Source: Ulota crispa
Taxonomy: Eukaryota > Streptophyta > Bryopsida > Orthotrichales > Orthotrichaceae
Direction: 5' to 3'
DNA: 64,000 bases
NCBI GenBank assembly: GCA_963920765.1
Contig: OY987243.1
Location: forward strand, 11,904,001-11,968,000
The position numbers and the translations under genes are program-made. Position 1 is the stretch's first letter. Each line of letters begins with the position of its first letter. The notes beneath the pieces were generated by a model. That model saw only the letters and a program-made list of their open reading frames with translations. It made no database searches and had not been told where the DNA came from. Positions 4,276 to 56,053 of the stretch are shown here, piece by piece.

Positions 4276-4279
4276 TTAA

Positions 4280-4491
4280 CCCCTGAAAGGCCCTTGGGCT
4301 CTAGAGATACAGTAACAAATACGGTCGCAACCAATATTCAAAAGTTTGAATTAGCTAGAAATTAAGTGTTACAACCATACATATTAAAGGGTTGTATGAT
4401 GGTGGGTGCATAATTATTTTTGGAAAGCCCTCAGAACAGCTCAAATATGGCTGTACATATGGCCACAGATGGCCGATGGGCCATTTGGGGA
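4280..4491. mobile_element. TTAA-family element, short subfamily (copy 1)
   Basis: A 212-bp non-coding element begins CCCCTGAAAGGCCCTTGGGC and ends GGGCCATTTGGGGA. TTAA flanks both sides (4276-4279 and 4492-4495). The body is the reverse complement of the element at 58919-59129, for example the segment around GTATGGTTGTAACACTTAA on the other strand. Two dispersed copies of nearly equal length in opposite orientation support a mobile unit. There is no transposase, so it would be non-autonomous. Confidence 0.8.
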
Positions 4492-4495
4492 TTAA

Positions 4496-5876: not shown

Positions 5877-6478
5877 GGGAAAATTTCATGGTTACCCCTA
5901 AAGTTTGCCATATTCAGAAATTTCACAAACACCCTTGGATCAAAATTTTCAGGCATTTGTTTTGTTGTGTAAGGTAGGAGCATCCATAAACTTCAAACTA
6001 AGGGTTTTGAGCATGGTGACTATTAATAAACAACTAGCAAATTATAGGATCCTATAAGGAACAAAAAAAAAAGAGTTTGCACTTTCAAATGTATTATTTG
6101 GATATTATGAGAATAAGCTGTGAATTTTTAAAGAGCAAATTGCCATTGCACCCATAACCACTTTTAAGATTTCATGTTCACATGTTGTACATCCTTGTCA
6201 TTACATCTATTTACTTCCATAGATTTTCCAAGATTTCAAAGGTGACGGTTATGGGGACACTAATGCTTATGGGTGTTCCTACCTTATACCATTTCCTTTC
6301 TTCCTTTGTGCGCATGCATGACAAAATAGAAGTAGTGTGTACAAAGGGAGAAGGAAGTGACATGCACAACAAAACAATTGCCGAAAAGTTTTAGTCCAAG
6401 GGTATTTGTGAAATTTCTGAAAAAGGAGGGGATCTATGAAAATATGACAAATTTCAGAGGTATCCATGAAATCTTCCC
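5877..6478. mobile_element. Foldback element, GGGAAAATTTCATGG family, copy 1 (split by an insertion)
   Basis: The ends are GGGAAAATTTCATGGTTACC and TATCCATGAAATCTTCCC. The internal inverted motifs are ACACCCTTGGATCAAAA and AGTCCAAGGGTATTTGTG. Uninterrupted relatives at 54313-54625 and 54686-54994 are about 310 bp. This copy is about 602 bp because an AGGTAGG-family element (5972-6284) sits in its middle, right after the conserved TTTGTTTTGTTGTG motif. Confidence 0.85.
5972..6284. mobile_element. AGGTAGG-family MITE, copy 1 (nested)
   Basis: A 313-bp element has left end AGGTAGGAGCATCCATAAAC and right end GCTTATGGGTGTTCCTACCT, with TA on both sides (5970-5971 and 6285-6286). The body is shared, in reverse orientation, with copies at 20330 and 30802, and in the same orientation with the copy at 46175. 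It is non-coding. TA duplication suggests a Tc1/mariner-type mobiliser (inference). It is inserted in the foldback element 5877-6478. Confidence 0.85.
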
Positions 6479-7339
6479 TAAATTTTAAACACTTAAATTT
6501 GAATTTTTAAAAATAAATTCTAAATTAGCAAAATTTAGTGCTTGACGCAAAAAATAACCTCAAACCTTACAATGCAATTAAAAGGTGAAGTTTGATATGC
6601 ATAAGTTACAAAGACATATTAAACAACTTTTGTGATATATGTTAATAGAATTTGTAGCTCCTTTTAATTTGTTCTTGAAAAGAGAAATTTAAAACATTGA
6701 TAAAGCCCCTACATATTGTACAAGCTTAATTGGAGCGATTCATAAAAGGTGTAGAAGACAAAATAAATAGACTACATTAGAGGAAATTGTTGGAGCTTTA
6801 GTCTTTCACCTCTCTTATATTTCAAAGCAATCATTCATGTATGTGCCAAGAAATTGTACATTTTGTTGGGGTTCAAAATCTATGATGATAGTATTTTTTT
6901 GGTATTTAACACTAAATGTAAGAAATATTATTTAATATTTAATTCCAAAAAATAAGTCTCAATATCTAAATGATTACAAACTTGCAACTAAGGTATTCTA
7001 TAGTTTATTTTTAATAATTACATTGCAATTATTAATAAATAATGCTCCTATGTGTGTGCATAAATGTGTGTCTATACATATGTGTGTGTGTGTTTGTGTG
7101 TGTGCGCATACATTCTTTTATGAACTTGATCAATATGTTTTTAGTGTTGTTTTTGTAGTGACCGTTTCAAAATGACTACATATACACAAGTTCTAAGAGA
7201 TTTTTTTAATATATAGTATATGAATTTTTTTTTTGAAACAATTCAAAGACCCAAATGGATCACTTAGCGCCACGGTTTAAATTGTTGTAAATTTTTGGCC
7301 TAAAACTTACTTGAGTATATGCCTAGCAAATACAAGACT
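6479..7339. repeat. AT-rich intergenic with a TG microsatellite at 7051-7108
   Basis: The only structure seen is an imperfect (TG)n tract at 7051-7108. No gene was recognised. Confidence 0.6.
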
Positions 7340-13813: not shown

Positions 13814-14803
13814 TTAAAGTAGGCATGAATCATGGGAAAATTATCACTAATTTGAAAATACAACTTGACATAGAAGTGGCAACTTTTATTTTGTTATTGA
13901 GTTCTAGATCCGGCTTATAATTTCAATTTAAAAAAAATATGAATTAACCCCTAAAGGACCAAAATCCCCTTGGGGGACTTTTGGGATTTTGGGCATGTAT
14001 TTACGGCTAAACTACATTGTGTAATTTTTTGAAACTTTTATGGAAAATGGGGAATTCAAAGATCTGTGTGGGCATCTAATTTTAACCTCATTTTGACATT
14101 TATCGAAGAAGTTAAAGATGAATTTATGAGAATTTTAGTTCGGCGGGTAGCTCAAAAACTTCTTCAAAATTTGCAGTTTTAAAAAATAAAAATTTGAGGC
14201 TAGTTCTTTAGACTTATGTATATGTGGGAAGCTTTGAATCATTCAATTCTAATTAATGAGATGAAAGTTATGAGAAGTTTTTGTTGAAGTATAGGCATAG
14301 TTTTGAGATTTTCCACACCTACCCGCAAACTAAAACTTCTCATAACTTTCATCTCATCAATTAGAATTGAATGATTCAAAGCTTCCCATATTTACATAAG
14401 TCTAAAGAACTAACCTCAAATTTTTATTTAAAAAAAATGCAATTTTTAAAGAAGTTTCTAGATTGCCCACCAAACTAAAATTCTCATAAATTCATTTTTA
14501 ACTTCTTCAATAAATGTTGGAATGAGGAAAAAACTAGATGTCCACACAGATCTTTGAATTCCCCATCTCCCATAAAAGTTTCAAAAAATCACGCAAAGTA
14601 GTTTAGCCATAAGTACGTGCCTGAAATCCCATTTGTCCCCAAAAAGGGGGCTTGGTCCTTTAGGGGTTAAAGTATAATTTGGATTTTTCAATTGATATTT
14701 TGAGCACAATCAGGAGCTAAAAATAAAAATAAAGTTACAACTTCTATGACAAGTTGTATTTTCAAATTAGTGATGTTTTTCCTGTGGTCCACCTCTACTT
14801 TAA
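13814..14803. repeat. About 990-bp inverted repeat (long hairpin), bounded by TTAA
   Basis: Two arms of roughly 470 bp are inverted copies with a loop of about 50 bp near 14282-14330. Paired blocks include CACTAATTTGAAAATACAAC with GTTGTATTTTCAAATTAGTG, TTCAAAGATCTGTGTGG with CCACACAGATCTTTGAA, and GAAAGTTATGAGAAGTTTT with its inverse at 14331. Both outer ends are TTAA (13814-13817 and 14800-14803). Transcription would give a long double-stranded RNA. Confidence 0.85.
13948..14666. mobile_element. TTAA-family element, foldback derivative
   Basis: CCCCTAAAGGACCAAAATCC at the left and GGCTTGGTCCTTTAGGGG at the right, with TTAA outside (13944-13947 and 14667-14670). Both halves match the same end of the long subfamily at 39921 and 45252: the free-standing copies share GAAACTTTTATGGAAGA and AAGATCTATGTGGGCATC with each arm here. 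So this is a head-to-head foldback version of that subfamily. Confidence 0.8.
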
Positions 14804-15874
14804 CCCCTAAATGCCTGAGGTCTTTTTTGACCTTTTAGGAATTTGCTCTAAGTTGAACAAAAAGCTAACATTTTAATAAGTTGTCTCAAATTTTTAAAAT
14901 TGTAAATGCCCATATTCAAACTAGGTATGTTAGAGATCACATAGGTAAAGAAGACACAACAATGTCAATTATGGATTGAAAGATTATTATGTTTGATCAT
15001 GAGGGTGTTAAAATTGCAAAAATGACTTGAAGTCTTTCAATCCTCTTTTCACATATTGAATCTAAAAAAATTGATCACCACAAAAATACAAGGTTAAAAG
15101 ACATAACATACATAACTCCAATCACTTTATGGCTTTTCAAAATCTCTTCTATGATTTTTTCAAGGAATTGCTAACAAGACACCCTAAATTGCTAATAGGA
15201 CACCGCCTATGAGCATGAAATTTGATCATTTAGTACTATGTTTTGTTTATTCAAGTGGTCCATCATTCAATCAATCATGACATTACAACCTCTTTGAAAA
15301 AAACATGACAAATAAATATTTTTGTTGAAATATTATTGCACCAATGCTAATTTTTCATGTATTTTTGCTATCAGTAACTCAAAAGTCCTATATTTTTAGT
15401 TTCATATTTAAGCACATCTATTTTTTTTAATATAGTCTTAGAATGATAAAGGTGAAACAAATTTGTTGATCCAAATAAAAAATCAACATTAAAAATCACA
15501 TATCATGCTCACAAGGGTTGTCGCGTCAGTAAGTTCCTTTATAAAATGAGTTTCTAGTGTAAATTTTTCTCCAAGACCTAGTGTACTTGAGGCTCATTTC
15601 CAAAAGCCCTCAACCCTAAAAAACGTCAAAACCCTTGCACAAAATCTTGAATAGAAAAATCATAATCAATCATTTTCAAAATCAGATTTTTGAAGCCTAA
15701 ACTAGACTTCTAAAAGATTAGTTCAAAACATAAACTACTAAAAATAGCAACTTAGTTAGGTTTATTGAACTTCAAAGTATTGTCAACACCAAGATTTAAA
15801 TATTGGCCATATATAGTAGATGTGGTAGAATAGTTGAAAAGGGGTGGTACATGTACCGGTTCCCTTATTAGATA
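14804..15874. other. AT-rich intergenic starting with a lone TTAA-family terminus
   Basis: TTAA at 14800-14803 is followed by CCCCTAAATGCCTGAGGTC, a typical left terminus of the TTAA family. No matching right terminus was found, so it is probably truncated. The remainder to 15874 shows nothing recognisable. Confidence 0.45.
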
Positions 15875-18690: not shown

Positions 18691-21600
18691 ATGTCTTGGA
18701 TTTCTAGTTCTTTCTCTCGTTCTGCAGCACCCTCGCCAGAGCAAGACAGATCTGGTAAAATAGAACCAGATGACGACGGAGAAACCTCGAGTCAGGAGGG
18801 CAAGGGCGTTACGGATGAGTTCTTTGAACTGACCAAGAATATAACCCAACAATTTTGGGGCGTAGCGTCATTTTTGGCTCCTCCTCCTATTCAGGTGGAA
18901 TCTCCAAATCTCACCAGCACACCACAAATGGCCTCACATAGTATGACGATCGCTGGGAAATCAGAAGATCCTCAAGTTGCTATGGATGTGGTTGCAAAAG
19001 AAGAACAAGAAATCCCGGGGTTTTCATCGGTGGCAGAAGTAGCCGGAATGGAATCTGCCAACCTTGCGGAAAGTCAGAAGACTTTTGAAGGGATTAGTAC
19101 TTCGTCAGCCAGTGGCTCTCCTAGTGCATCTGGGGAGAAATTTACAGGTTTTCGGAGTGACTTGGCTGAGTTGAAGGGCACTATGGCCACTGGCTTCTCA
19201 CGAATACAAACTGTGATTCGAGCTGTTACGCAGGATGAAGACGAAGACGAAGATGAGGCGGCTGAAAGTTCACTTGCGGAGGATAGTTTTCATGGGGATA
19301 ACGGCCTGAGTTCGTTGCTGAAGCCACTGTTAGTGAGCATGTCGTCATTTCGTGAGAGATTTCCTAGAAGCGAGAGAGAGGAGTCGCCTTTAGATGTTGG
19401 AGAACGTGTCGAAAGAGACATGGACTATGAAATTCGGCCCAAGGTTCGTGTTTTTTGAGTTGAATAGGAATGCGCATTTATGGAGGATTTTTGGATTGTT
19501 GCACCTATCGGGGATTTCTATCACGTAATCAATGTGCTTCGAGATCCATTTAGTTTTGTAGATGTATGCTAGTCAATTATCGATTTACAACCTAGCATGC
19601 TCTTTTACTACGTAAATCATAAAGCTTTCTGCACTTCTTGATGTTGGCCTGCAGAATATTTATCTTGGTTGAATGTCTTGATGTGCAGCCTGCAGGTCAA
19701 AGCTCGCTAGCGGGCAACATTGGTGGTTTGTCTAGATTTGCTACCAATTTCATTCCCTATGCTCGGGATATAGTTGGAGAAATTTCAAGAAAAGACTATT
19801 ATGCTGTGGCATTGACAGATGAGGTAGTGGCTTTTGCCGACAATATTGCAATGCACCCGGAGACTTGGCTGGATTTTCCATTGCTAGAGGAAGAGGAAAA
19901 TGAGGGTAAGCCATATTAGCATGTGGTTGAGTCCATTTGAATGGGTCCCCATCGTTCAATGTTTTCATATCAGACGGTTTCAAGGAGGGAATATTTGAGA
20001 ATCCTTGCAAAATTGAGACTGAGATAGACTGAAGTTTAATGCTAACAGAGTAAATTTTCCATTTAGATTTGAACAGAGCCTCATAGGATGAACTTAGAGA
20101 AAACTTGCACATCAGAAAGGGGACATGAGTTGAAAAATGGAAAAACATAGCCCAAAGAAGTCAAAAGCTTCGATCCCTTACCATGCGGATATCCTTGTGG
20201 TTCAGACCAAGAATTCACCAATCGCAAAAACTGCTACCGTCGCACTAAGTTGCTGACTTACATTTTAGTTAACGTGTGCGATGCAATTTTATTTGGTACT
20301 CACACCCTGGATGGTGTTAAGGTAGGAACACCCATAAGCGTTAGTGTCCCCATAACCGTTAGTGCCCCCATAACCGATATCTAAATTCTTGGAAAATCTG
20401 TTGAAGTAAATAGATGTAATTACAAGGATGTACAACATGTGAACATGAAACCTTAGTGTTGGTTATGGGTGTAATGGCAATTTGCTCTTTCAAAATTCAC
20501 AACTTGTTCTCACAGTATCCAAATAATACATTCGAAAGTGCAATCTCATTACTTTTCTGTTCCTAATAGGATCCTTTAATTTGCTAGATGTTTGTTAATA
20601 GTCATCATGTTCAAAACCCTTAAACTAACGCTTATGGGTGTTCCTACCTTACTGTGAAAAGAGTATTTACTTTCAGTTTTGTTGTGTAGAATTTGAGATG
20701 ACGGAAATACAATACGAGCATGCCAAAGCTGTGGAAGAACTGTCATCTAAGCTTGCAGCAGTGCACCGTGAGCTTTGCCCAGCTTTCATTAGTGATGGTC
20801 GCTTTTGGAAGATCTATCTTGTGCTTTTACACTCGCGCCTCAGTAAGGAGGATGCAGAGCTTTTATCCACATCTCAGGTATGTCCAATGAGTTTGTTTTC
20901 AAGGATCACCAGTAGCAACTTGTATGTCTAAGTAAGTCGAAGGATTTCGTGCTTTGAGTGTAGATTATTAGGGCTTCCTTGACTATCTGCAAGGTGCACC
21001 CGCTTGCAACTATGTAACACAAATTTGTTTGTTTTTTTATTTCCCCTGTTTACAGATTTTAAAAGCTCGGGAGGTACTTTTACAAATCAAAAAGCCGGAA
21101 CCCAAAGTTTCAGACACAGCCCCCACTACATCTGAACGTGAGGAGCTTGGACTCACCGAGTCGAATATGGCGCATTTGCGGTTTGAAAATGTTGCACATG
21201 AGGAGCATTTCAAGTCTTCTGCAGAATCTACTTTCCTGCCCATCATGGAGGAAGTATCACTGGACTATGCTTCTCATCCTCAGCCAGAGTCTTCTCAGGA
21301 GATTCTTTCTGTTGCGACAGATGTCGAGGAAGGAGCACATGAGTCACGCTCTCTGCGCTTTACAGCGTTGAAGCTGGACGATGAGGACGCCGATGCGAAT
21401 GCTTGGCTTGATCAGGATGAAGGAAACGATGTGAATGAAACTGCTGATAGAGGTCTAAACACACACCTGTGATTGCGTGCGAGGATTACTTGGCATGTTT
21501 CGTGGTTTCTATGTTTATTTTTTTACCAACTTGTTTTGTGGATGCAGGAGCAGCAGTAAGTATAGATGAAGATGTGTCCTTCAGTGATCTAGAAGATGAT

Positions 21601-30747: not shown

Positions 30748-30801
30748 TATTTGTTATTAACCTTTTGCCGTTTTGTAAGACATTCATTGCTTCTAATTGT
30801 A

Positions 30802-31507
30802 AGGTAGGAACACCCATAAGCGTTAGTGTCCCTATAACCGTCACCTCTGAAATCTTGGAAAGTCTGTGAAAATTAATAGATATGATTATAAGGATGTACA
30901 ACATGTGAACATGAAACCTTAGTGTTGGTTATGGGTGCAATGGCAGTTTGCTCTTTAAAAATTCACAACTTATTCTCACATCTATACTTATAATAGGCTT
31001 GGTTCCATTAGTTGGGTAGTTGGGTGTCTATAATAAAATAAAATCTCTATTAGTTGGGTAGTTGGGTGTTGCTCCAAGAAGATTAAGTGGCAGTTATGTG
31101 GCGGTTATTCTTATTTCTAAGGTTATGTGACGGTTATGGTTGTCCTTGGGGATGGGGTATACAGGGGAATAGGGGGTGGTTGCTTGGAGAAGGGGGCAAA
31201 GCGTGTAGGTAGGCATAGTACAGGTAAGCTCATTGGAACGGAAAGGAGAAGAATCTTGAAGAAGGTGATTATGAGGAAGGTCATGTTAACTTTTTTGCAA
31301 GGACCCCTTCCCATGATGGCCGTCCGCCAGAACAGCGGGTACAAGGGTCTACTAGTAATATTATAATACTTGTTATCCAAATAATACATTTGAAAGTGCA
31401 AACTCATTTTTTTAAAATTTCTAATAGGATCCTATAATTTGCTAGTTGTTTATTAATAGTCATCATGTTCAAAACCCTTAGTTGGATGTTTATGGGTGCT
31501 CCTATCT
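30802..31507. mobile_element. AGGTAGG-family MITE, copy 3 (split by an insertion)
   Basis: The left end is AGGTAGGAACACCCATAAGC and the right end is the decayed TTTATGGGTGCTCCTATCT. TA lies at 30800-30801 and 31508-31509. The body matches the intron copy at 20330 until 30980, then resumes at about 31356-31373 after a 375-bp foreign segment. Confidence 0.88.
30981..31355 (+). mobile_element. Putative non-autonomous Helitron nested in the AGGTAGG MITE
   Basis: It begins TCTATACTTATAATAGGC directly after an A and ends GGGTCTACTAG directly before a T. A short hairpin, CCGC-CAGAACA-GCGG, lies 17 nt before the end. The 5' TC, the 3' hairpin, the CTAG end and A/T insertion are the plant Helitron hallmarks, and no target duplication is seen. 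It has no Rep/helicase coding capacity. The tandem motif TTAGTTGGGTAGTTGGGTG occurs twice near the 5' end. The host junction at the right differs slightly from other MITE copies, so the exact end could be off by up to 18 bp. Confidence 0.6.
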
Positions 31508-31616
31508 TATGTTTATCACTTTACATCCAATCTTAGGATTCCAATTTTTTAAAATCTTGATACAATTCTGTGCTTTATTTGTTTTTATACTTTGAACAAG
31601 TTGAAAACTTAGAAAT

Positions 31617-37679: not shown

Positions 37680-37683
37680 TTAA

Positions 37684-38197
37684 CCCCTAAATGCCCAATT
37701 GATCATTTTTTGGTTGCTACCCTTTTTTTGGGCTGCCCAAGATGAAAAAATAAAGTATACTTTCATATAGGAAAGCAAGTCTACTTTCCAACCCATTTTT
37801 GAATCATGTCAATCCAAGTTAAACTCCACCAAGGAGAATTTTTCAAAGACAAACACTTCAATATTTGCTAGTGTTATAAAATTTACTATTTTGAGAAACT
37901 AATGATGTTCTCTTCTTCAAAAAAAAACAGTTTTTACTTTTAGGATAGAATGTCAAATTTAAACCTATCATACCAAATTTTGTATTTCATGAATTATTTT
38001 GATGAATATTAAATGGTAAATGCTTCTAAAATTCATTAATAAAGAGTGCAAAACATTTTTTGAAATTTTGACCGTATTGATAATTACTAAACATCATGAT
38101 TCTTGTTTTCTCTTTTGGAGCAACCTTCATCAAAGTTACAAAAGTAATGTTTTATAATGGATCTATGTTTTGCCCTTACCCCTTGGGCGTTAAGGGG
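37684..38197. mobile_element. TTAA-family element (514 bp)
   Basis: It starts CCCCTAAATGCCCAATTGAT and ends CTTGGGCGTTAAGGGG, with TTAA on both sides (37680-37683 and 38198-38201). The right end also has an internal TTAA immediately before the last four G. Non-coding. Confidence 0.75.
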
Positions 38198-38201
38198 TTA
38201 A

Positions 38202-39920: not shown

Positions 39921-40801
39921 CCCTTAGAGGATCATTGTCCCCTTGGAGGATAAATGGGATTTTAGGCATGTACCTATAACTAAATTACTTTGAGTAATAT
40001 TTTGAAACTTTTATGGAAGATGTGGAACTTAAAGATCTATGTGGGCATCTAATTTTTTCTTCATTCCAACATTTATTGAAGAAGTTAAGCAAGGATTATC
40101 AAAATTAGGGGAAGAGGGGCAATTTGAGCAAGGCCTCTCCTTTGTAAGTAGGTGTTGACTCCAAAGAGGGTCAACCCTTCCGAGCGCAATGTGTGGACAC
40201 TTGGGCAAAGGGGAGTGGAGTGGAAGGAGTCTGTCTTGGGGGACTCCCAATCCTCCATTCCTTTTGCCCCTTGTAAATTTTGGTATTTTATTTTTTTAAG
40301 CGGTTTATGCATGTGTTTGTTTTTATTTTTATTTTGTTTCCAAATTATATTCAAAATTCTAGATTTTACTTAAATCCTCCAATTTTTCCTAGTGTACTTG
40401 CAAATATCATGACCTTTGGGCATTCAAGGGTTTTTAAAGTATGTTTTACACCTCCAATTCATTTGAAAATTCTCCCACACATACCTAGCTTGGTCTTCTA
40501 CATGGAGCAACTAAACCTCAATTTTGTTTAGAGTAATTTTTTTTCTATAGGAGCAATCAAAGGCTTTTGAAGTATTGAGCAAGAAGGAAAAAAGAAAATC
40601 TTCACTTTAGATGTCAATATCTCACTCCTCTCCATCTGAAATGAGCTGATTTTTTCCACAAGTACCTTGCATAGCCTAGAGGAAGACTTTATGATTGGAT
40701 TTGTTTTTTTAAACATTATTTCCTACCTTTCTACTCAATTCCTTGAAAGTGGCAATTTTCAATGACTTTTACAAAGAAATGAAGGCTTGGTCCTTCACGG
40801 A
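39921..40801. mobile_element. TTAA-family element, long subfamily (881 bp)
   Basis: The left end CCCTTAGAGGATCATTGTCC follows a decayed TCAA. The right end GGCTTGGTCCTTCACGGA is followed by TTAA (40802-40805). The body is the inverted equivalent of 59356-60327; both carry the segment around TTTTGCCCCTTGTAAA, and AGTGGCAATTTTCAATGACT against its inverse. It shares CATGTACCTATAACTAAATT with the foldback copy at 13948. Confidence 0.78.
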
Positions 40802-45247: not shown

Positions 45248-45251
45248 TTAA

Positions 45252-46171
45252 CCCTAAAGGACCATTGTCCCTATGAAGGACAAATGGGATTTTGGGCAGG
45301 TACCTATGGTTTCAATTTTTGTCCTAATTTTTTGAAACTTTTTTTGAAGATAGGAAAACACATTAGCTTTTGGAGAATTTAATTTTTATTCCAATTGATG
45401 CTAGGGAGCAAAAGTTATGCCCAAATAAGCACAAATTTGGGGGCTAGGGGCAGCAAAAAAAATTCTTATAAAAATTTGAAAAAAAAATTTAATTTATTTT
45501 TCTTATAGATTATATTTTTGTCTACATCTGAAGTTTTGATTCATTCCATTTGGACTAGTTATGAGAAAGTTATGGACAATCTTGTTTTTCGGGCAACTCA
45601 AGCATCTTCTTGAAAAAATAACTTGTAAACTTCATTTTTGAATGTAGGTTTAACATTTTTTCAAAAGAAATTGTTGGAGAGGGTGAAATTTGCTTTCTAG
45701 AACAATCCTACCATTGGGATTATTGCATTTCAATTCCATTGCAGGGTTACTAGCAATTTAAGTTTTTGTTCAATCTCATACCTTCTTCTACCTAATGTTT
45801 TTTTAAAGAATGAAAATTAAGTATTCTTTTTCCAAATTTTTTCCCAAGATTCTCAACTCAACCTCCCACTATGCAAAAATAGGATTCCAACCTTTGTTGC
45901 GCAAAAATTTTAAGTTAAAAATGTTCAAAGTTAAAAAATCTAGTCAAGCAAGGTGCAAAAAAAGTTTTTTTTACACTTTAAATGCATATATCTTCCAATC
46001 TGTGTGGTCAAAGTTCTTGGGTTTTGCATGACACATTCTTATAGTAGTCTAGCACAAGACCCTATGATCAAATATGCAAAATGCCTGATTTTCAAACTTT
46101 TTTACTCTTTGCCATAGAGGTGGCAGTTTTGAGTGTCTTTTGACAAAATAAAGGCCATGGTCCTTTAGGGG
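45252..46171. mobile_element. TTAA-family element, long subfamily (920 bp)
   Basis: CCCTAAAGGACCATTGTCCC at the left and CATGGTCCTTTAGGGG at the right, with TTAA at 45248-45251 and 46172-46175. Inside, GACAAATGGGATTTTGGGCA and GGTGGCAGTTTTGAGTGTCT link it to the copies at 39921 and 59356. Non-coding. An AGGTAGG MITE lies immediately at its right border. Confidence 0.82.
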
Positions 46172-46174
46172 TTA

Positions 46175-46489
46175 AGGTATGTACACCCATAAGTGTCAAA
46201 CTAAGGGTTTTGAACATGATGAGTATTAATAAATAGCTAGCAAATTATATGATCCTATTAGGAACTGAAAAAGATTCAGTTTGCACTTTTGAATGTATTA
46301 TTTGGATATAGTGAGAATAAGTTGTGAATTTTTAAAGAGCAAATTGCCATTGCACCCATAACCACTTTCAAGATTTCATGTTCACATATGTTGTACATCT
46401 TTGTCATGACATCTATTCACTTCCACAGATTTTCCAACATTTCAGAGGTGACAATTATGGGACAGTGACGCTTATGGGTGTACATACCT
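46175..46489. mobile_element. AGGTAGG-family MITE, copy 4
   Basis: The ends are AGGTATGTACACCCATAAG and CTTATGGGTGTACATACCT, perfect inverse of one another, with TA at 46173-46174 and 46490-46491. The body matches copies 1-3. The shared change of the tip (AGGTATGTAC for AGGTAGGAAC) at both ends suggests paired change or a sub-lineage. It inserted next to, or into, the TTAA at the end of the element 45252-46171. Confidence 0.92.
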
Positions 46490-46682
46490 TAGTTCAAGAT
46501 ACTATTGCACAAAGGAAAATAAAAATTACAAATTATGCACTTAATTGTGGTCTTCACTATATCCGGGGAATGCTATTTCATGAGCAGGGATTTGTGAACT
46601 AAGCTATTGTGTTACTAAAAGATTTATTAGTTCAAGATACTTTTGCATAGAGGAAAATAAAAATTACAAATTATGCACTTAA
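46490..46682 (+). repeat. Tandem duplication preserving an empty TTAA site
   Basis: 46490-46626 and the segment starting at 46627 are direct copies (TTCAAGATACTATTGCACA against TTCAAGATACTTTTGCATA; both AAATTACAAATTATGCAC). In the first copy ATGCACTTAATTGTGGTC runs on uninterrupted (TTAA at 46541-46544). In the second copy the same TTAA is split by the element at 46683-47449. Confidence 0.93.
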
Positions 46683-47449
46683 CCCCTAAGCGTCTTGCTA
46701 AGAAAATTCAGCCTACCTCCAACATGAAATTTTCAACACATTCCCAGAGTTTTTGAAAAGTTGAACAAGTAATCACATAATCCAATTTGGTCATTCTATA
46801 CCCAACTATAAATCAAATGTTTTAAGCCGGTTTGATTTCAAATCCAAGTAAATCTGCAAAATCCCCACCGTTGAGAATCTCATGTTTTCCAATTTGGGCA
46901 ATAGTCTAAAATATGGATTTTGGACTTTCATGTAATATTTTCTCAAAAAAAGGATTCACCTGATGGCTAATCCCATGAGATTGTATCTTGTTATGCTTCA
47001 TGGAAAAAAACTCCACAAATGGAAAAAAACTCCAAAAGATATGGGCACTCAAAGTAGCTAGATTCCACTAGCTCTTTCCTTTGGAGCTATAATAACTTTG
47101 CCCAAATCAAGAAAAAAAAAAGCCACACATCACCAAACTTCTCTCTCATACAATACAAGACGTGAGAGCGCCTATCCCATCCGCTCTCCAAGCTACTCCC
47201 TTTGTTTGCCCTGAGACATTCTTCTCTTAATTGTTGAAAAAATAGAATATTTTACATATTCCTTGTAGAATCTAGAGCAAAGGAGGCGCTTTAAGGAACA
47301 ACAAGCCAATCAGAAATTTTTCTTGAACTAGCAGCTCCATTTGGACTTGAGTGGCAAACTAAAATTTGAGCTAAAAATGCCTCTTTTGTATACTTTCACA
47401 CCTCCAAGCACCCCCTTTGGCCATATTGGGCTCTTTGGTCCTTTAGGGG
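46683..47449. mobile_element. TTAA-family element with proven insertion site (767 bp)
   Basis: It starts CCCCTAAGCGTCTTGC and ends TTTGGTCCTTTAGGGG. TTAA lies at 46679-46682 and 47450-47453. Left flank AATTATGCAC and right flank TTGTAGTCTTCACTATATCC are contiguous, joined through a single TTAA, in the unfilled duplicate at 46531-46562. The element therefore added exactly its own length plus one TTAA. Non-coding. Confidence 0.93.
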
Positions 47450-47735
47450 TTAATTGTAGTCTTCACTATATCCGGGGAATGCTATTTCATGAGCAGGGAT
47501 TTGTGAGCCGTGAGCAATGATAGGAATTTTTTGTCAAAATAATAAATTCCACTTATAACCATGTACACATAGCCCTATAATTGTGTATTTTAAGCTAACA
47601 TCTCCTAAAAAACTTGCTATTTTTTTTAGTTATTTCTTTGATTTTGAGCTGAGAATCCGTTCATTCTTACAATCTTGAATCCCCGCTCATGGTTCACTGT
47701 TTTATGCTCACCAAATAGGTCGTCCCACTATATCC
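47450..47735. repeat. Dispersed repeat (copy B)
   Basis: Right part of the split tandem duplication (to about 47507), running into a segment shared with 42085-42385 (TTTTTTGTCAAAATAATAAA, TGTACACATAGCCCTATAAT, CCCCGCTCATGGTTCAC). Confidence 0.65.
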
Positions 47736-54994: not shown

Positions 54995-55153
54995 AAATAG
55001 ATGTGATATACAGAGGTTTGTTGCAAATAAGTATAATACCAATGTCCATAATAAGGAAGTCAATATACAAGCCGGTGTAAATAGAACTATTCAAAGGTTC
55101 ATGTACAAATGGTACACTAAATAGTGCATTTAGGTTGTTTCACGCTAATTTAA

Positions 55154-56049
55154 CCCCTCAATGCCCATGACTATGTTTCACCAAAAAACATTTGGGATGG
55201 GCTGTTTTTTTTTTATATATATAGCAATAGCAAAATAAAGATGGAAAATGAAATCTTGGTGCAATTAACCCTAGGATCTGGTGTTAGACTACTTCATCAT
55301 GATACAATACAAATTTGAAAGATACTTACTGTACAAAAAGTGAGATTATAAGGTTTGAAGTGAAAAAAAAAAATGGCATTCAAGTTCTTGGCAACTTTGA
55401 TTTGTGGAGATATTTGCACCAATTGATCACTTTTTGTATTGTAATTTTCAAATTAAATTTTGTAATAGAGCTAGTCATATGCTTAAGAATTTTCATAACA
55501 CTTTAATTTGAAAACACACACTAAGATTTTAGAATAAGAAACTAGCTTCAAGATAATTCTCATACAAAGCCATTTTTTCAACAATTTTTGGCTTCCACAT
55601 ACAAATTTATTTTCAAAATGTGAACAGTGGAGCTTTAGATTTTAGCTAACTTTAGAAGGAGAAGAAAATAGAAAGCAAATCAGTTAAAAACTCTGGCTTT
55701 GAAAAGCTTGGTCAACCTAAGGCCACTTCCAACAAAGGTGAAGTAAAGGGCGATAAGCAAAAACAATTGCCTTCATGAAATGAAGTTGGGTCATACATGA
55801 CGAGGAAAGATTTATGCATCTACAATGTAAAAGAATCTATTTGTGCTAACCCTTGAGCAAACAAAACTATTGATATTGCATCATAACTTTTTTTTTACTA
55901 ATCAAAATGGTTTGAAAAAGGTTGCATCTAAAAGCTGTTCCTTGGGCACACATCTTCTAAATTTTTGTGGGAAGTTAGTTGTTGTTTTATAAGTACTAGC
56001 CTACCTAAAATGGAAGCAAAAAAAAAAAGCAATTTGGGTATTTCAAGGG
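55154..56049. mobile_element. TTAA-family element (896 bp)
   Basis: It starts CCCCTCAATGCCCATGACTA and ends GGGTATTTCAAGGG, with TTAA at 55150-55153 and 56050-56053. Non-coding; the interior matches no other copy that I could recognise. Confidence 0.7.
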
Positions 56050-56053
56050 TTAA

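What the first reader, a model, noticed from the sequence alone, without database searches (positions are those of the whole stretch)
46490..47507. An in-window empty site proves TTAA target duplication for a small plant element
A local tandem duplication keeps two versions of one locus. The first reads ATGCAC-TTAA-TTGTGGTCTTC without interruption (TTAA at 46541-46544). The second has the same flanks, with TTAA repeated on each side of a 767-bp element (CCCCTAAGCG...TTTAGGGG, 46683-47449). The insertion therefore duplicated exactly TTAA. TTAA duplication with CCC-starting termini is the signature of the piggyBac superfamily, which to my knowledge is rare or undescribed in land plants.
Basis: partly seen in the sequence, partly recalled or inferred. 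Interest (0 to 1): 0.78.

Follow-up and report, generated by a model that had tools for sequence, protein, structure and literature searches.

The report
Moss genome full of piggyBac transposons
A small mobile DNA element in a moss chromosome turns out to belong to piggyBac, a transposon family best known from insects, and the same moss genome carries thousands of similar ends and longer elements that encode piggyBac-type enzymes, which is little documented for land plants.

Summary
In detail: the 767-bp element at 46683-47449 lies between TTAA copies, and a sister locus at 46489-46597 keeps the site with a single TTAA. The same genome gives 120 matches to the piggyBac transposase domain PF13843 (best E 1.3e-73). 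Five of nine transposase regions with long flanks are enclosed by paired TTAA-CCC/CTC ends, 5.0-6.0 kb apart, against 6 of 54 dummy cores; one has its ends fixed by a second copy. The DDD triad is kept in 14 of 22 distinct copies, a C-terminal Cys motif in 15 of 20. TTAACCCCTAAAGGNCCA occurs 10,100 times in 275 Mb. By its LEAFY gene the host is a moss. New: an unnamed N-terminal domain, upstream of a scored transposase in 30 of 53 hits. So the focal element is a non-autonomous member of a piggyBac population amplified in a land plant. Its own full-length parent was not found. The passages seen name piggyBac for plants only in lists or repeat tables; none describes a land-plant transposase.

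The parts
46683..47449 (+). Focal non-autonomous element, 767 bp, termini CCCCTAAGCGTC / CCCCTAAAGGACC (right end read inward)
46679..46682 (.). Left TTAA target-site copy
47450..47453 (.). Right TTAA target-site copy
46489..46597 (+). Empty sister copy of the local duplication; single TTAA at 46541-46544
46627..46682 (+). Filled copy, left flank
47450..47506 (+). Filled copy, right flank
45248..46175 (+). Another element of the group, ends TTAACCCTAAAGGACCA / TTAACCCCTAAAGGACCA
13944..14670 (.). Another element, 727 bp, 14/14 TIR match, self-complementary over its whole length (83%)
14800..14827 (+). End of a further element, TTAACCCCTAAATGCC; 90% identical over 29 bp to the left end of the transposase-bearing element on C5 (E 0.003)
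37680..38201 (+). Another element, 522 bp, ends TTAACCCCTAAATGCCCA / TTAACCCCTTAACGCCCA; near-empty paralogue in L028
58915..59133 (.). Short element of the group, 219 bp; relative at 4276-4495
55150..56053 (.). Candidate element, 904 bp, ends TTAACCCCTCAATGCCCA / TTAACCCTTGAAATACCC

Best explanation
The focal element is a non-autonomous piggyBac-superfamily DNA transposon in a moss. Shown by sequence: it sits in duplicated TTAA; its CCCCTAA-type termini belong to a group with more than ten thousand ends in this genome; larger elements (5.0-6.0 kb) with the same kind of ends carry piggyBac transposase genes, many with the DDD triad and a C-terminal Cys-rich motif, and with a further upstream domain without a convincing match in Pfam or PDB sequences. 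Inferred: a transposase made by such a full-length element bound the short ends in trans, cut the element out leaving an intact TTAA, as piggyBac does, and joined it into TTAA sites; many transposase genes seen here are decayed, so the bursts that made these copies look largely past.
For: Empty/filled pair exact to TTAA. A second clean junction: the outer element of L008 (left TTAA at 1490, right end 2626) against window 40024-40120. A third, L035:177-1661, aligns without gap at the junction to 3 of 6 realigned paralogues, whose own site is a variant such as TCAA. Of 11,954 CCCCTAAAGGNCCA ends, 10,100 (84.5%) are preceded by TTAA; the patterns read backwards give 0. Information is 1.6-2.0 bits at -1 to -4 and 0.03 at -5 in 54 held termini (30 loci had been chosen with TTAA). 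PF13843: 120 matches at 116 places, best 1.3e-73, 0 in 14 control genomes. Paired CCC/CTC ends of at least 11/14 around 5 of 9 transposase regions, 6 of 54 dummy cores. Two copies of one 5.03-kb element end at the same TTAA-flanked bases, 90.5% identical, no similarity outside. The 5.7-kb element on C5 has 14/14 matching ends and its first 29 bp match ends of small CCCCTAAAGG elements (L024, L025, L027) at 86-90%. In PDB two stop-free transposase frames match only 6x67/6x68 and piggyBat 9c0f. DDD in 14 of 22 distinct copies. Cys motif 15 of 20, 0 of 20 on the opposite strand.
Against: The full-length parent of the 767-bp family was not found, and its two ends differ. Within 1.5 kb of 20 transposase matches no close copy of the TTAACCCCTAAAGGACCA end was seen; the ends found lie further out and are of related, not identical, types. 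Four of nine regions show no CCC/CTC pair of 11/14 (L059, L061, L062, L063). The dummy-core rate is 11%, the dummy cores overlap, and Markov copies gave some pair in 0-15 of 100 runs per region; E42 and L061 also hold one non-CCC pair each. The end at L061:6537, at first taken as a link to the CCCCTAAAGG elements, is better read as a truncated small element and is not used. 8 of 22 transposases have lost a catalytic Asp, the stop-free L059 among them; the copies looked at are mostly the best-scoring ones. The empty paralogue of 37680-38201 is off by 1 bp. No movement was observed.
Confidence: 0.92

Rival explanations
1. A PIF/Harbinger (Tourist-like) MITE with a 3-bp TTA/TAA duplication that happens to sit in TTAA.
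For: TTAA contains TTA and TAA, so one pair alone could be cut as TTA + ACCCC...GGGG.
Against: That reading makes the ends asymmetric; 10,100 of 11,954 ends have all four bases, on both strands alike; -5 carries almost no information; elements with such ends hold PF13843 transposases.
Confidence: 0.03
2. A Kolobok-type element, another superfamily recalled to duplicate TTAA.
For: TTAA duplication alone does not separate the two (recalled; PMC9587614 seen in a search listing only).
Against: The enzymes between such ends match piggyBac in Pfam and PDB and have a C-terminal Cys motif.
Confidence: 0.02
3. The transposase elements are real but unrelated to the small elements, whose mover is another, unseen enzyme with the same TTAA habit.
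For: No parent of the 767-bp family was found; no transposase match lies in the window (one search listed none).
Against: Shared terminus types and 29 bp of shared end sequence between the C5 element and CCCCTAAAGG elements.
Confidence: 0.04

Closest known systems
piggyBac of Trichoplusia ni (PDB 6x67/6x68; that these entries are this protein is recalled)
   Same: TTAA target, CCC ends (ends recalled), homologous transposase (E 3.6e-20), C-terminal Cys-rich region
   Different: Moss elements are 5.0-6.0 kb against 2472 bp (length from a passage of PMC10140906), with a further domain 1.4-4.4 kb upstream of the catalytic domain
piggyBat transposase (PDB 9c0f)
   Same: Homologous over the catalytic domain (E 2.5e-20)
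   Different: Host kingdom; N-terminal region not compared
PiggyBac-labelled MITEs of angiosperms (named in PMC10004981)
   Same: Short elements grouped by ends and target duplication
   Different: The passage gives names only; here transposase-bearing elements with like ends are shown, in a moss
[quoted passage not shown]
   Same: Class II, terminal inverted repeats
   Different: piggyBac is not on that list

Membership tests
piggyBac superfamily | Duplication of TTAA on insertion | tested here: met
piggyBac superfamily | Short terminal inverted repeats starting CCC/CCY next to TTAA | tested here: met
   in the focal element the shared run is CCCCTAA
piggyBac superfamily | DDE_Tnp_1_7 transposase with DDD triad in elements with like ends | tested here: met
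   DDD in 14 of 22 distinct copies; the focal element itself has no ORF of 150 aa or more
piggyBac superfamily | C-terminal Cys-rich domain | tested here: met
   15 of 20, control 0 of 20, pattern tightened; Pfam PF13842 could not be run
piggyBac superfamily | Seamless excision | not testable with these tools
   the in-window empty site is compatible with it
piggyBac superfamily | A full-length piggyBac parent for the 767-bp family itself | tested here: inconclusive
   an end of the CCCCTAAGC type occurs on a transposase element (L064), but no parent sharing both ends was found
PIF/Harbinger | 3-bp TWA duplication | tested here: not met
PIF/Harbinger | DDE_Tnp_4 transposase between the same ends | not tested
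   not searched
Kolobok | Kolobok transposase between TTAA ends | not tested
   not searched; piggyBac transposase found
MITE (structural class) | Short, non-coding, inverted ends, high copy | tested here: met
   767 bp is at the long end

The most novel reading that the evidence does not exclude
Mosses hold an old, land-plant lineage of piggyBac transposons that diversified inside plants, gained or kept a dedicated N-terminal helical domain unknown elsewhere, and supplied a main class of small repeats in this genome.
Probability: 0.5. Interest if true: 0.75.

Novelty: new variant of a known kind. Interest (0 to 1): 0.63.

Why it matters
piggyBac is a standard genome-engineering tool described mainly from animals, fungi and protists. 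A moss with over ten thousand piggyBac-type ends and many transposase lineages would widen its documented range, offer plant-adapted transposases and ends, and show that TTAA-type small repeats deserve a place in plant annotation schemes that leave them out. The extra N-terminal domain is a direct question for structural work.

Tried and rejected
Rejected: PIF/Harbinger with a 3-bp duplication. L061:517-6537 as a full element, and its right end as a link to the CCCCTAAAGG elements: 5946-6540 is similar to most of the 893-bp element in L037, and the DNA just past 6537 resembles the inside of the C5 element, so a truncated small element inserted there is the better reading. L059:3448-4758 as an intact enzyme: the frame is open but the third Asp is Asn. 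The repeat family 5969-6286 / 20318-20651 / 46173-46491, split at about 30996-31373, as another filled/empty pair: no TTAA at its junctions. A relative of one transposase (L063) in viral contigs: none by tblastn. The N-terminal domain in Pfam (best E 0.034, 1 of 17 members) and PDB (best E 0.9): nothing convincing. A note of mine called the left end of L002 decayed; one search shows TTAA is there and the first C of the element is changed.

Full report
What was checked. The filled flanks, joined in a script, align to the empty copy over 109 bp without a gap, so exactly TTAA was duplicated or, equally, exactly TTAA was left after excision from one copy.

The family. The element is one of a dispersed family; 41 matches were returned, 40 of 778 first-look candidates having been scored. 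Eight copies, the focal one included, carry TTAA at 16 of 16 ends. They differ by a mean K2P of 0.086, minimum 0.057, with 1186 transitions to 523 transversions summed over pairs, so this family is not very young. The window holds several other elements with the same style of ends.

Scale. TTAACCCCTAAAGGNCCA occurs 10,100 times in the 275-Mb genome; read backwards, 0. Without TTAA the pattern occurs 11,954 times, so 84.5% keep all four bases. In 54 held termini the signal stops sharply after four bases; 30 of the loci had been chosen with TTAA, so the unbiased figure is the 84.5%.

More empty sites. One search screened joined flanks of 54 candidate pairs, where both flanks were held, against held DNA; many of its rows are self-matches, nested or overlapping places and were dropped. 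Kept: the focal pair; the outer element of L008, in whose CCCTTAAAGG terminus a copy of the 767-bp family has itself inserted at TTAA, with a single TTAA at window 40024-40120 (gaps elsewhere in that alignment); and L035:177-1661. Of six paralogues realigned to the latter, L038, L055 and L021 are ungapped, L012 has a 1-bp gap beside the junction, L033 and the window copy a 1-bp gap elsewhere; they carry variant sites such as TCAA. The pair for 37680-38201 is off by 1 bp.

The enzyme. PF13843 gives 120 matches at 116 places over contigs C1-C11, best E 1.3e-73, and none in the 14 control genomes; 116 of 528 candidates were scored, so the number is a lower bound. Two stop-free frames match only 6x67/6x68 and piggyBat 9c0f in PDB. 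The three catalytic Asp are all kept in 14 of 22 distinct copies (17 of 26 rows, four places being held twice); these are mostly the best-scoring copies. In the 20 best rows the in-frame stops are 25 TGA, 38 TAG and 11 TAA; with the Asp-to-Asn changes this looks like decay by C-to-T change, an inference. A motif CxxC-x(3-14)-CxxC lies some 60-70 codons past the end of the PF13843 match in 15 of 20 copies and in 0 of 20 on the opposite strand (the pattern was tightened after a first look). Copies are 31-49% identical in protein to the L063 query, and 26-35% to L059 apart from three relatives at 66-70%, so many lineages coexist.

Linking enzyme and ends. Close copies of the TTAACCCCTAAAGGACCA end were not seen within 1.5 kb of 20 transposase matches. 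Nine regions with longer flanks were scanned. Five have a CCC/CTC pair of at least 11 of 14 bases next to TTAA: C5:10867266-10873011 (14/14, CCCCTAAATGCCTA), C2:15046195-15051296 (12/14), C8:446266-451851 (11/14), C3:13130262-13135288 (12/14) and C4:4126481-4132490 (11/14). Dummy cores in the window gave 6 of 54 (overlapping frames, four distinct pairs); Markov copies had any pair of that quality in 0-15 of 100 runs per region, and E42 and L061 each hold one such pair that does not start with CCC. The C3 element has a second copy on C10 ending at the same bases, 90.5% identical, with no similarity outside. The first 29 bp of the C5 element match ends of small CCCCTAAAGG elements (L024, L025, L027) at 86-90% and window 14800-14827 at 90%; 352 bp of its left part match L035 at 75%. 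L059, L062 and L063 show no pair.

A new domain. Upstream frames of three distant transposase regions share a stretch with a WRYL..RQIAKLLGW-like core. Searching the genome with one of them gave 53 hits; 30 lie 1.4-4.4 kb upstream of a PF13843 match on the same strand, 0 near one on the opposite strand, 1 past one on the same strand; 0.07 expected by chance. The other 23 have no scored transposase within 6 kb; transposase scoring was incomplete. Twenty hits were fetched; 15 of them and 2 earlier loci were aligned, the other 5 left out for stops or short frames. AlphaFold2 predicts a helical domain, mean pLDDT 80.5, pTM 0.70. Pfam and PDB sequence searches give no convincing match. I take it as the N-terminal part or first exon of the transposase; that it binds DNA is a guess.

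The host. A VQ-motif gene lies in the window. The LEAFY DNA-binding exon matches PDB 4bhk at 60 of 61 residues, ahead of 9g19/9fwy, 2vy1 and 8s8q. That 4bhk is Physcomitrium LFY1 and 2vy1 Arabidopsis is recalled. Ten contigs of 15.8-41.4 Mb and one of 6.3 Mb would fit a pleurocarpous moss; that is recall and inference, and no species is named.

Literature, as seen. PMC10741241 (passages) lists seven plant DNA transposon superfamilies with TIRs, piggyBac not among them. PMC12550479 (passages) uses five superfamilies and one special group for MITEs of 207 plant genomes; the word piggyBac does not occur, nor in PMC9033089. On the other side, PMC10794571 (passages) names PiggyBac in a list of plant superfamilies, PMC10004981 (passage) among angiosperm MITE superfamilies, PMC10140906 and PMC10813416 (passages) say 'plants' without detail, PMC6890710 and PMC8319324 (table passages) count 1,230 repeats in a fern and one of 75 bp in a grass, and PMC12732532 (passages) says occasional in plants such as red algae. 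Ten searches were made. Of those naming mosses, one search listed 20 of 197 papers, 15 of 870, 10 of 10; I recognised none that reports piggyBac in a moss, but most were seen as listings only. In PMC10619864 the word is 'piggybacking'. Subscription papers and Repbase were not searchable, so priority is not settled.

Noticed in passing
L060:1690-2061, L063:5915-6646, L059:1594-1872, L066-L085: Conserved, predicted helical domain upstream of moss piggyBac transposases, without a convincing match in Pfam or PDB sequences.
   Followed up: partly
G000:C1:1180709-1181995, G000:C8:19570986-19572215, G000:C6:21758576-21759502: Transposase-like frames listed without stops; young copies or host-adopted genes.
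   Followed up: no
G000 C3:160709/184234, C7:18203169/18223004, C2:36765124/36779670, C10:676128/785346: Pairs of repeats with identical or near-identical scores on opposite strands, about 15-110 kb apart: inverted duplications in the chromosome or the assembly.
   Followed up: no
window 13944-14670: A 727-bp element self-complementary over its whole length (83%), a possible source of long hairpin RNA.
   Followed up: no
window 5969-6286, 20318-20651, 46173-46491, 30800-30995 + 31374-31509: Another repeat family, one copy split by about 378 bp; no TTAA at the junctions.
   Followed up: partly
L008:1490-2626: A 767-bp copy inserted into the TTAA inside the CCCTTAAAGG terminus of another element: nested insertion into the group's own end.
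   Followed up: yes
L061:5946-6655: A truncated small element next to DNA resembling the inside of the C5 transposase element, perhaps one element inside another.
   Followed up: partly
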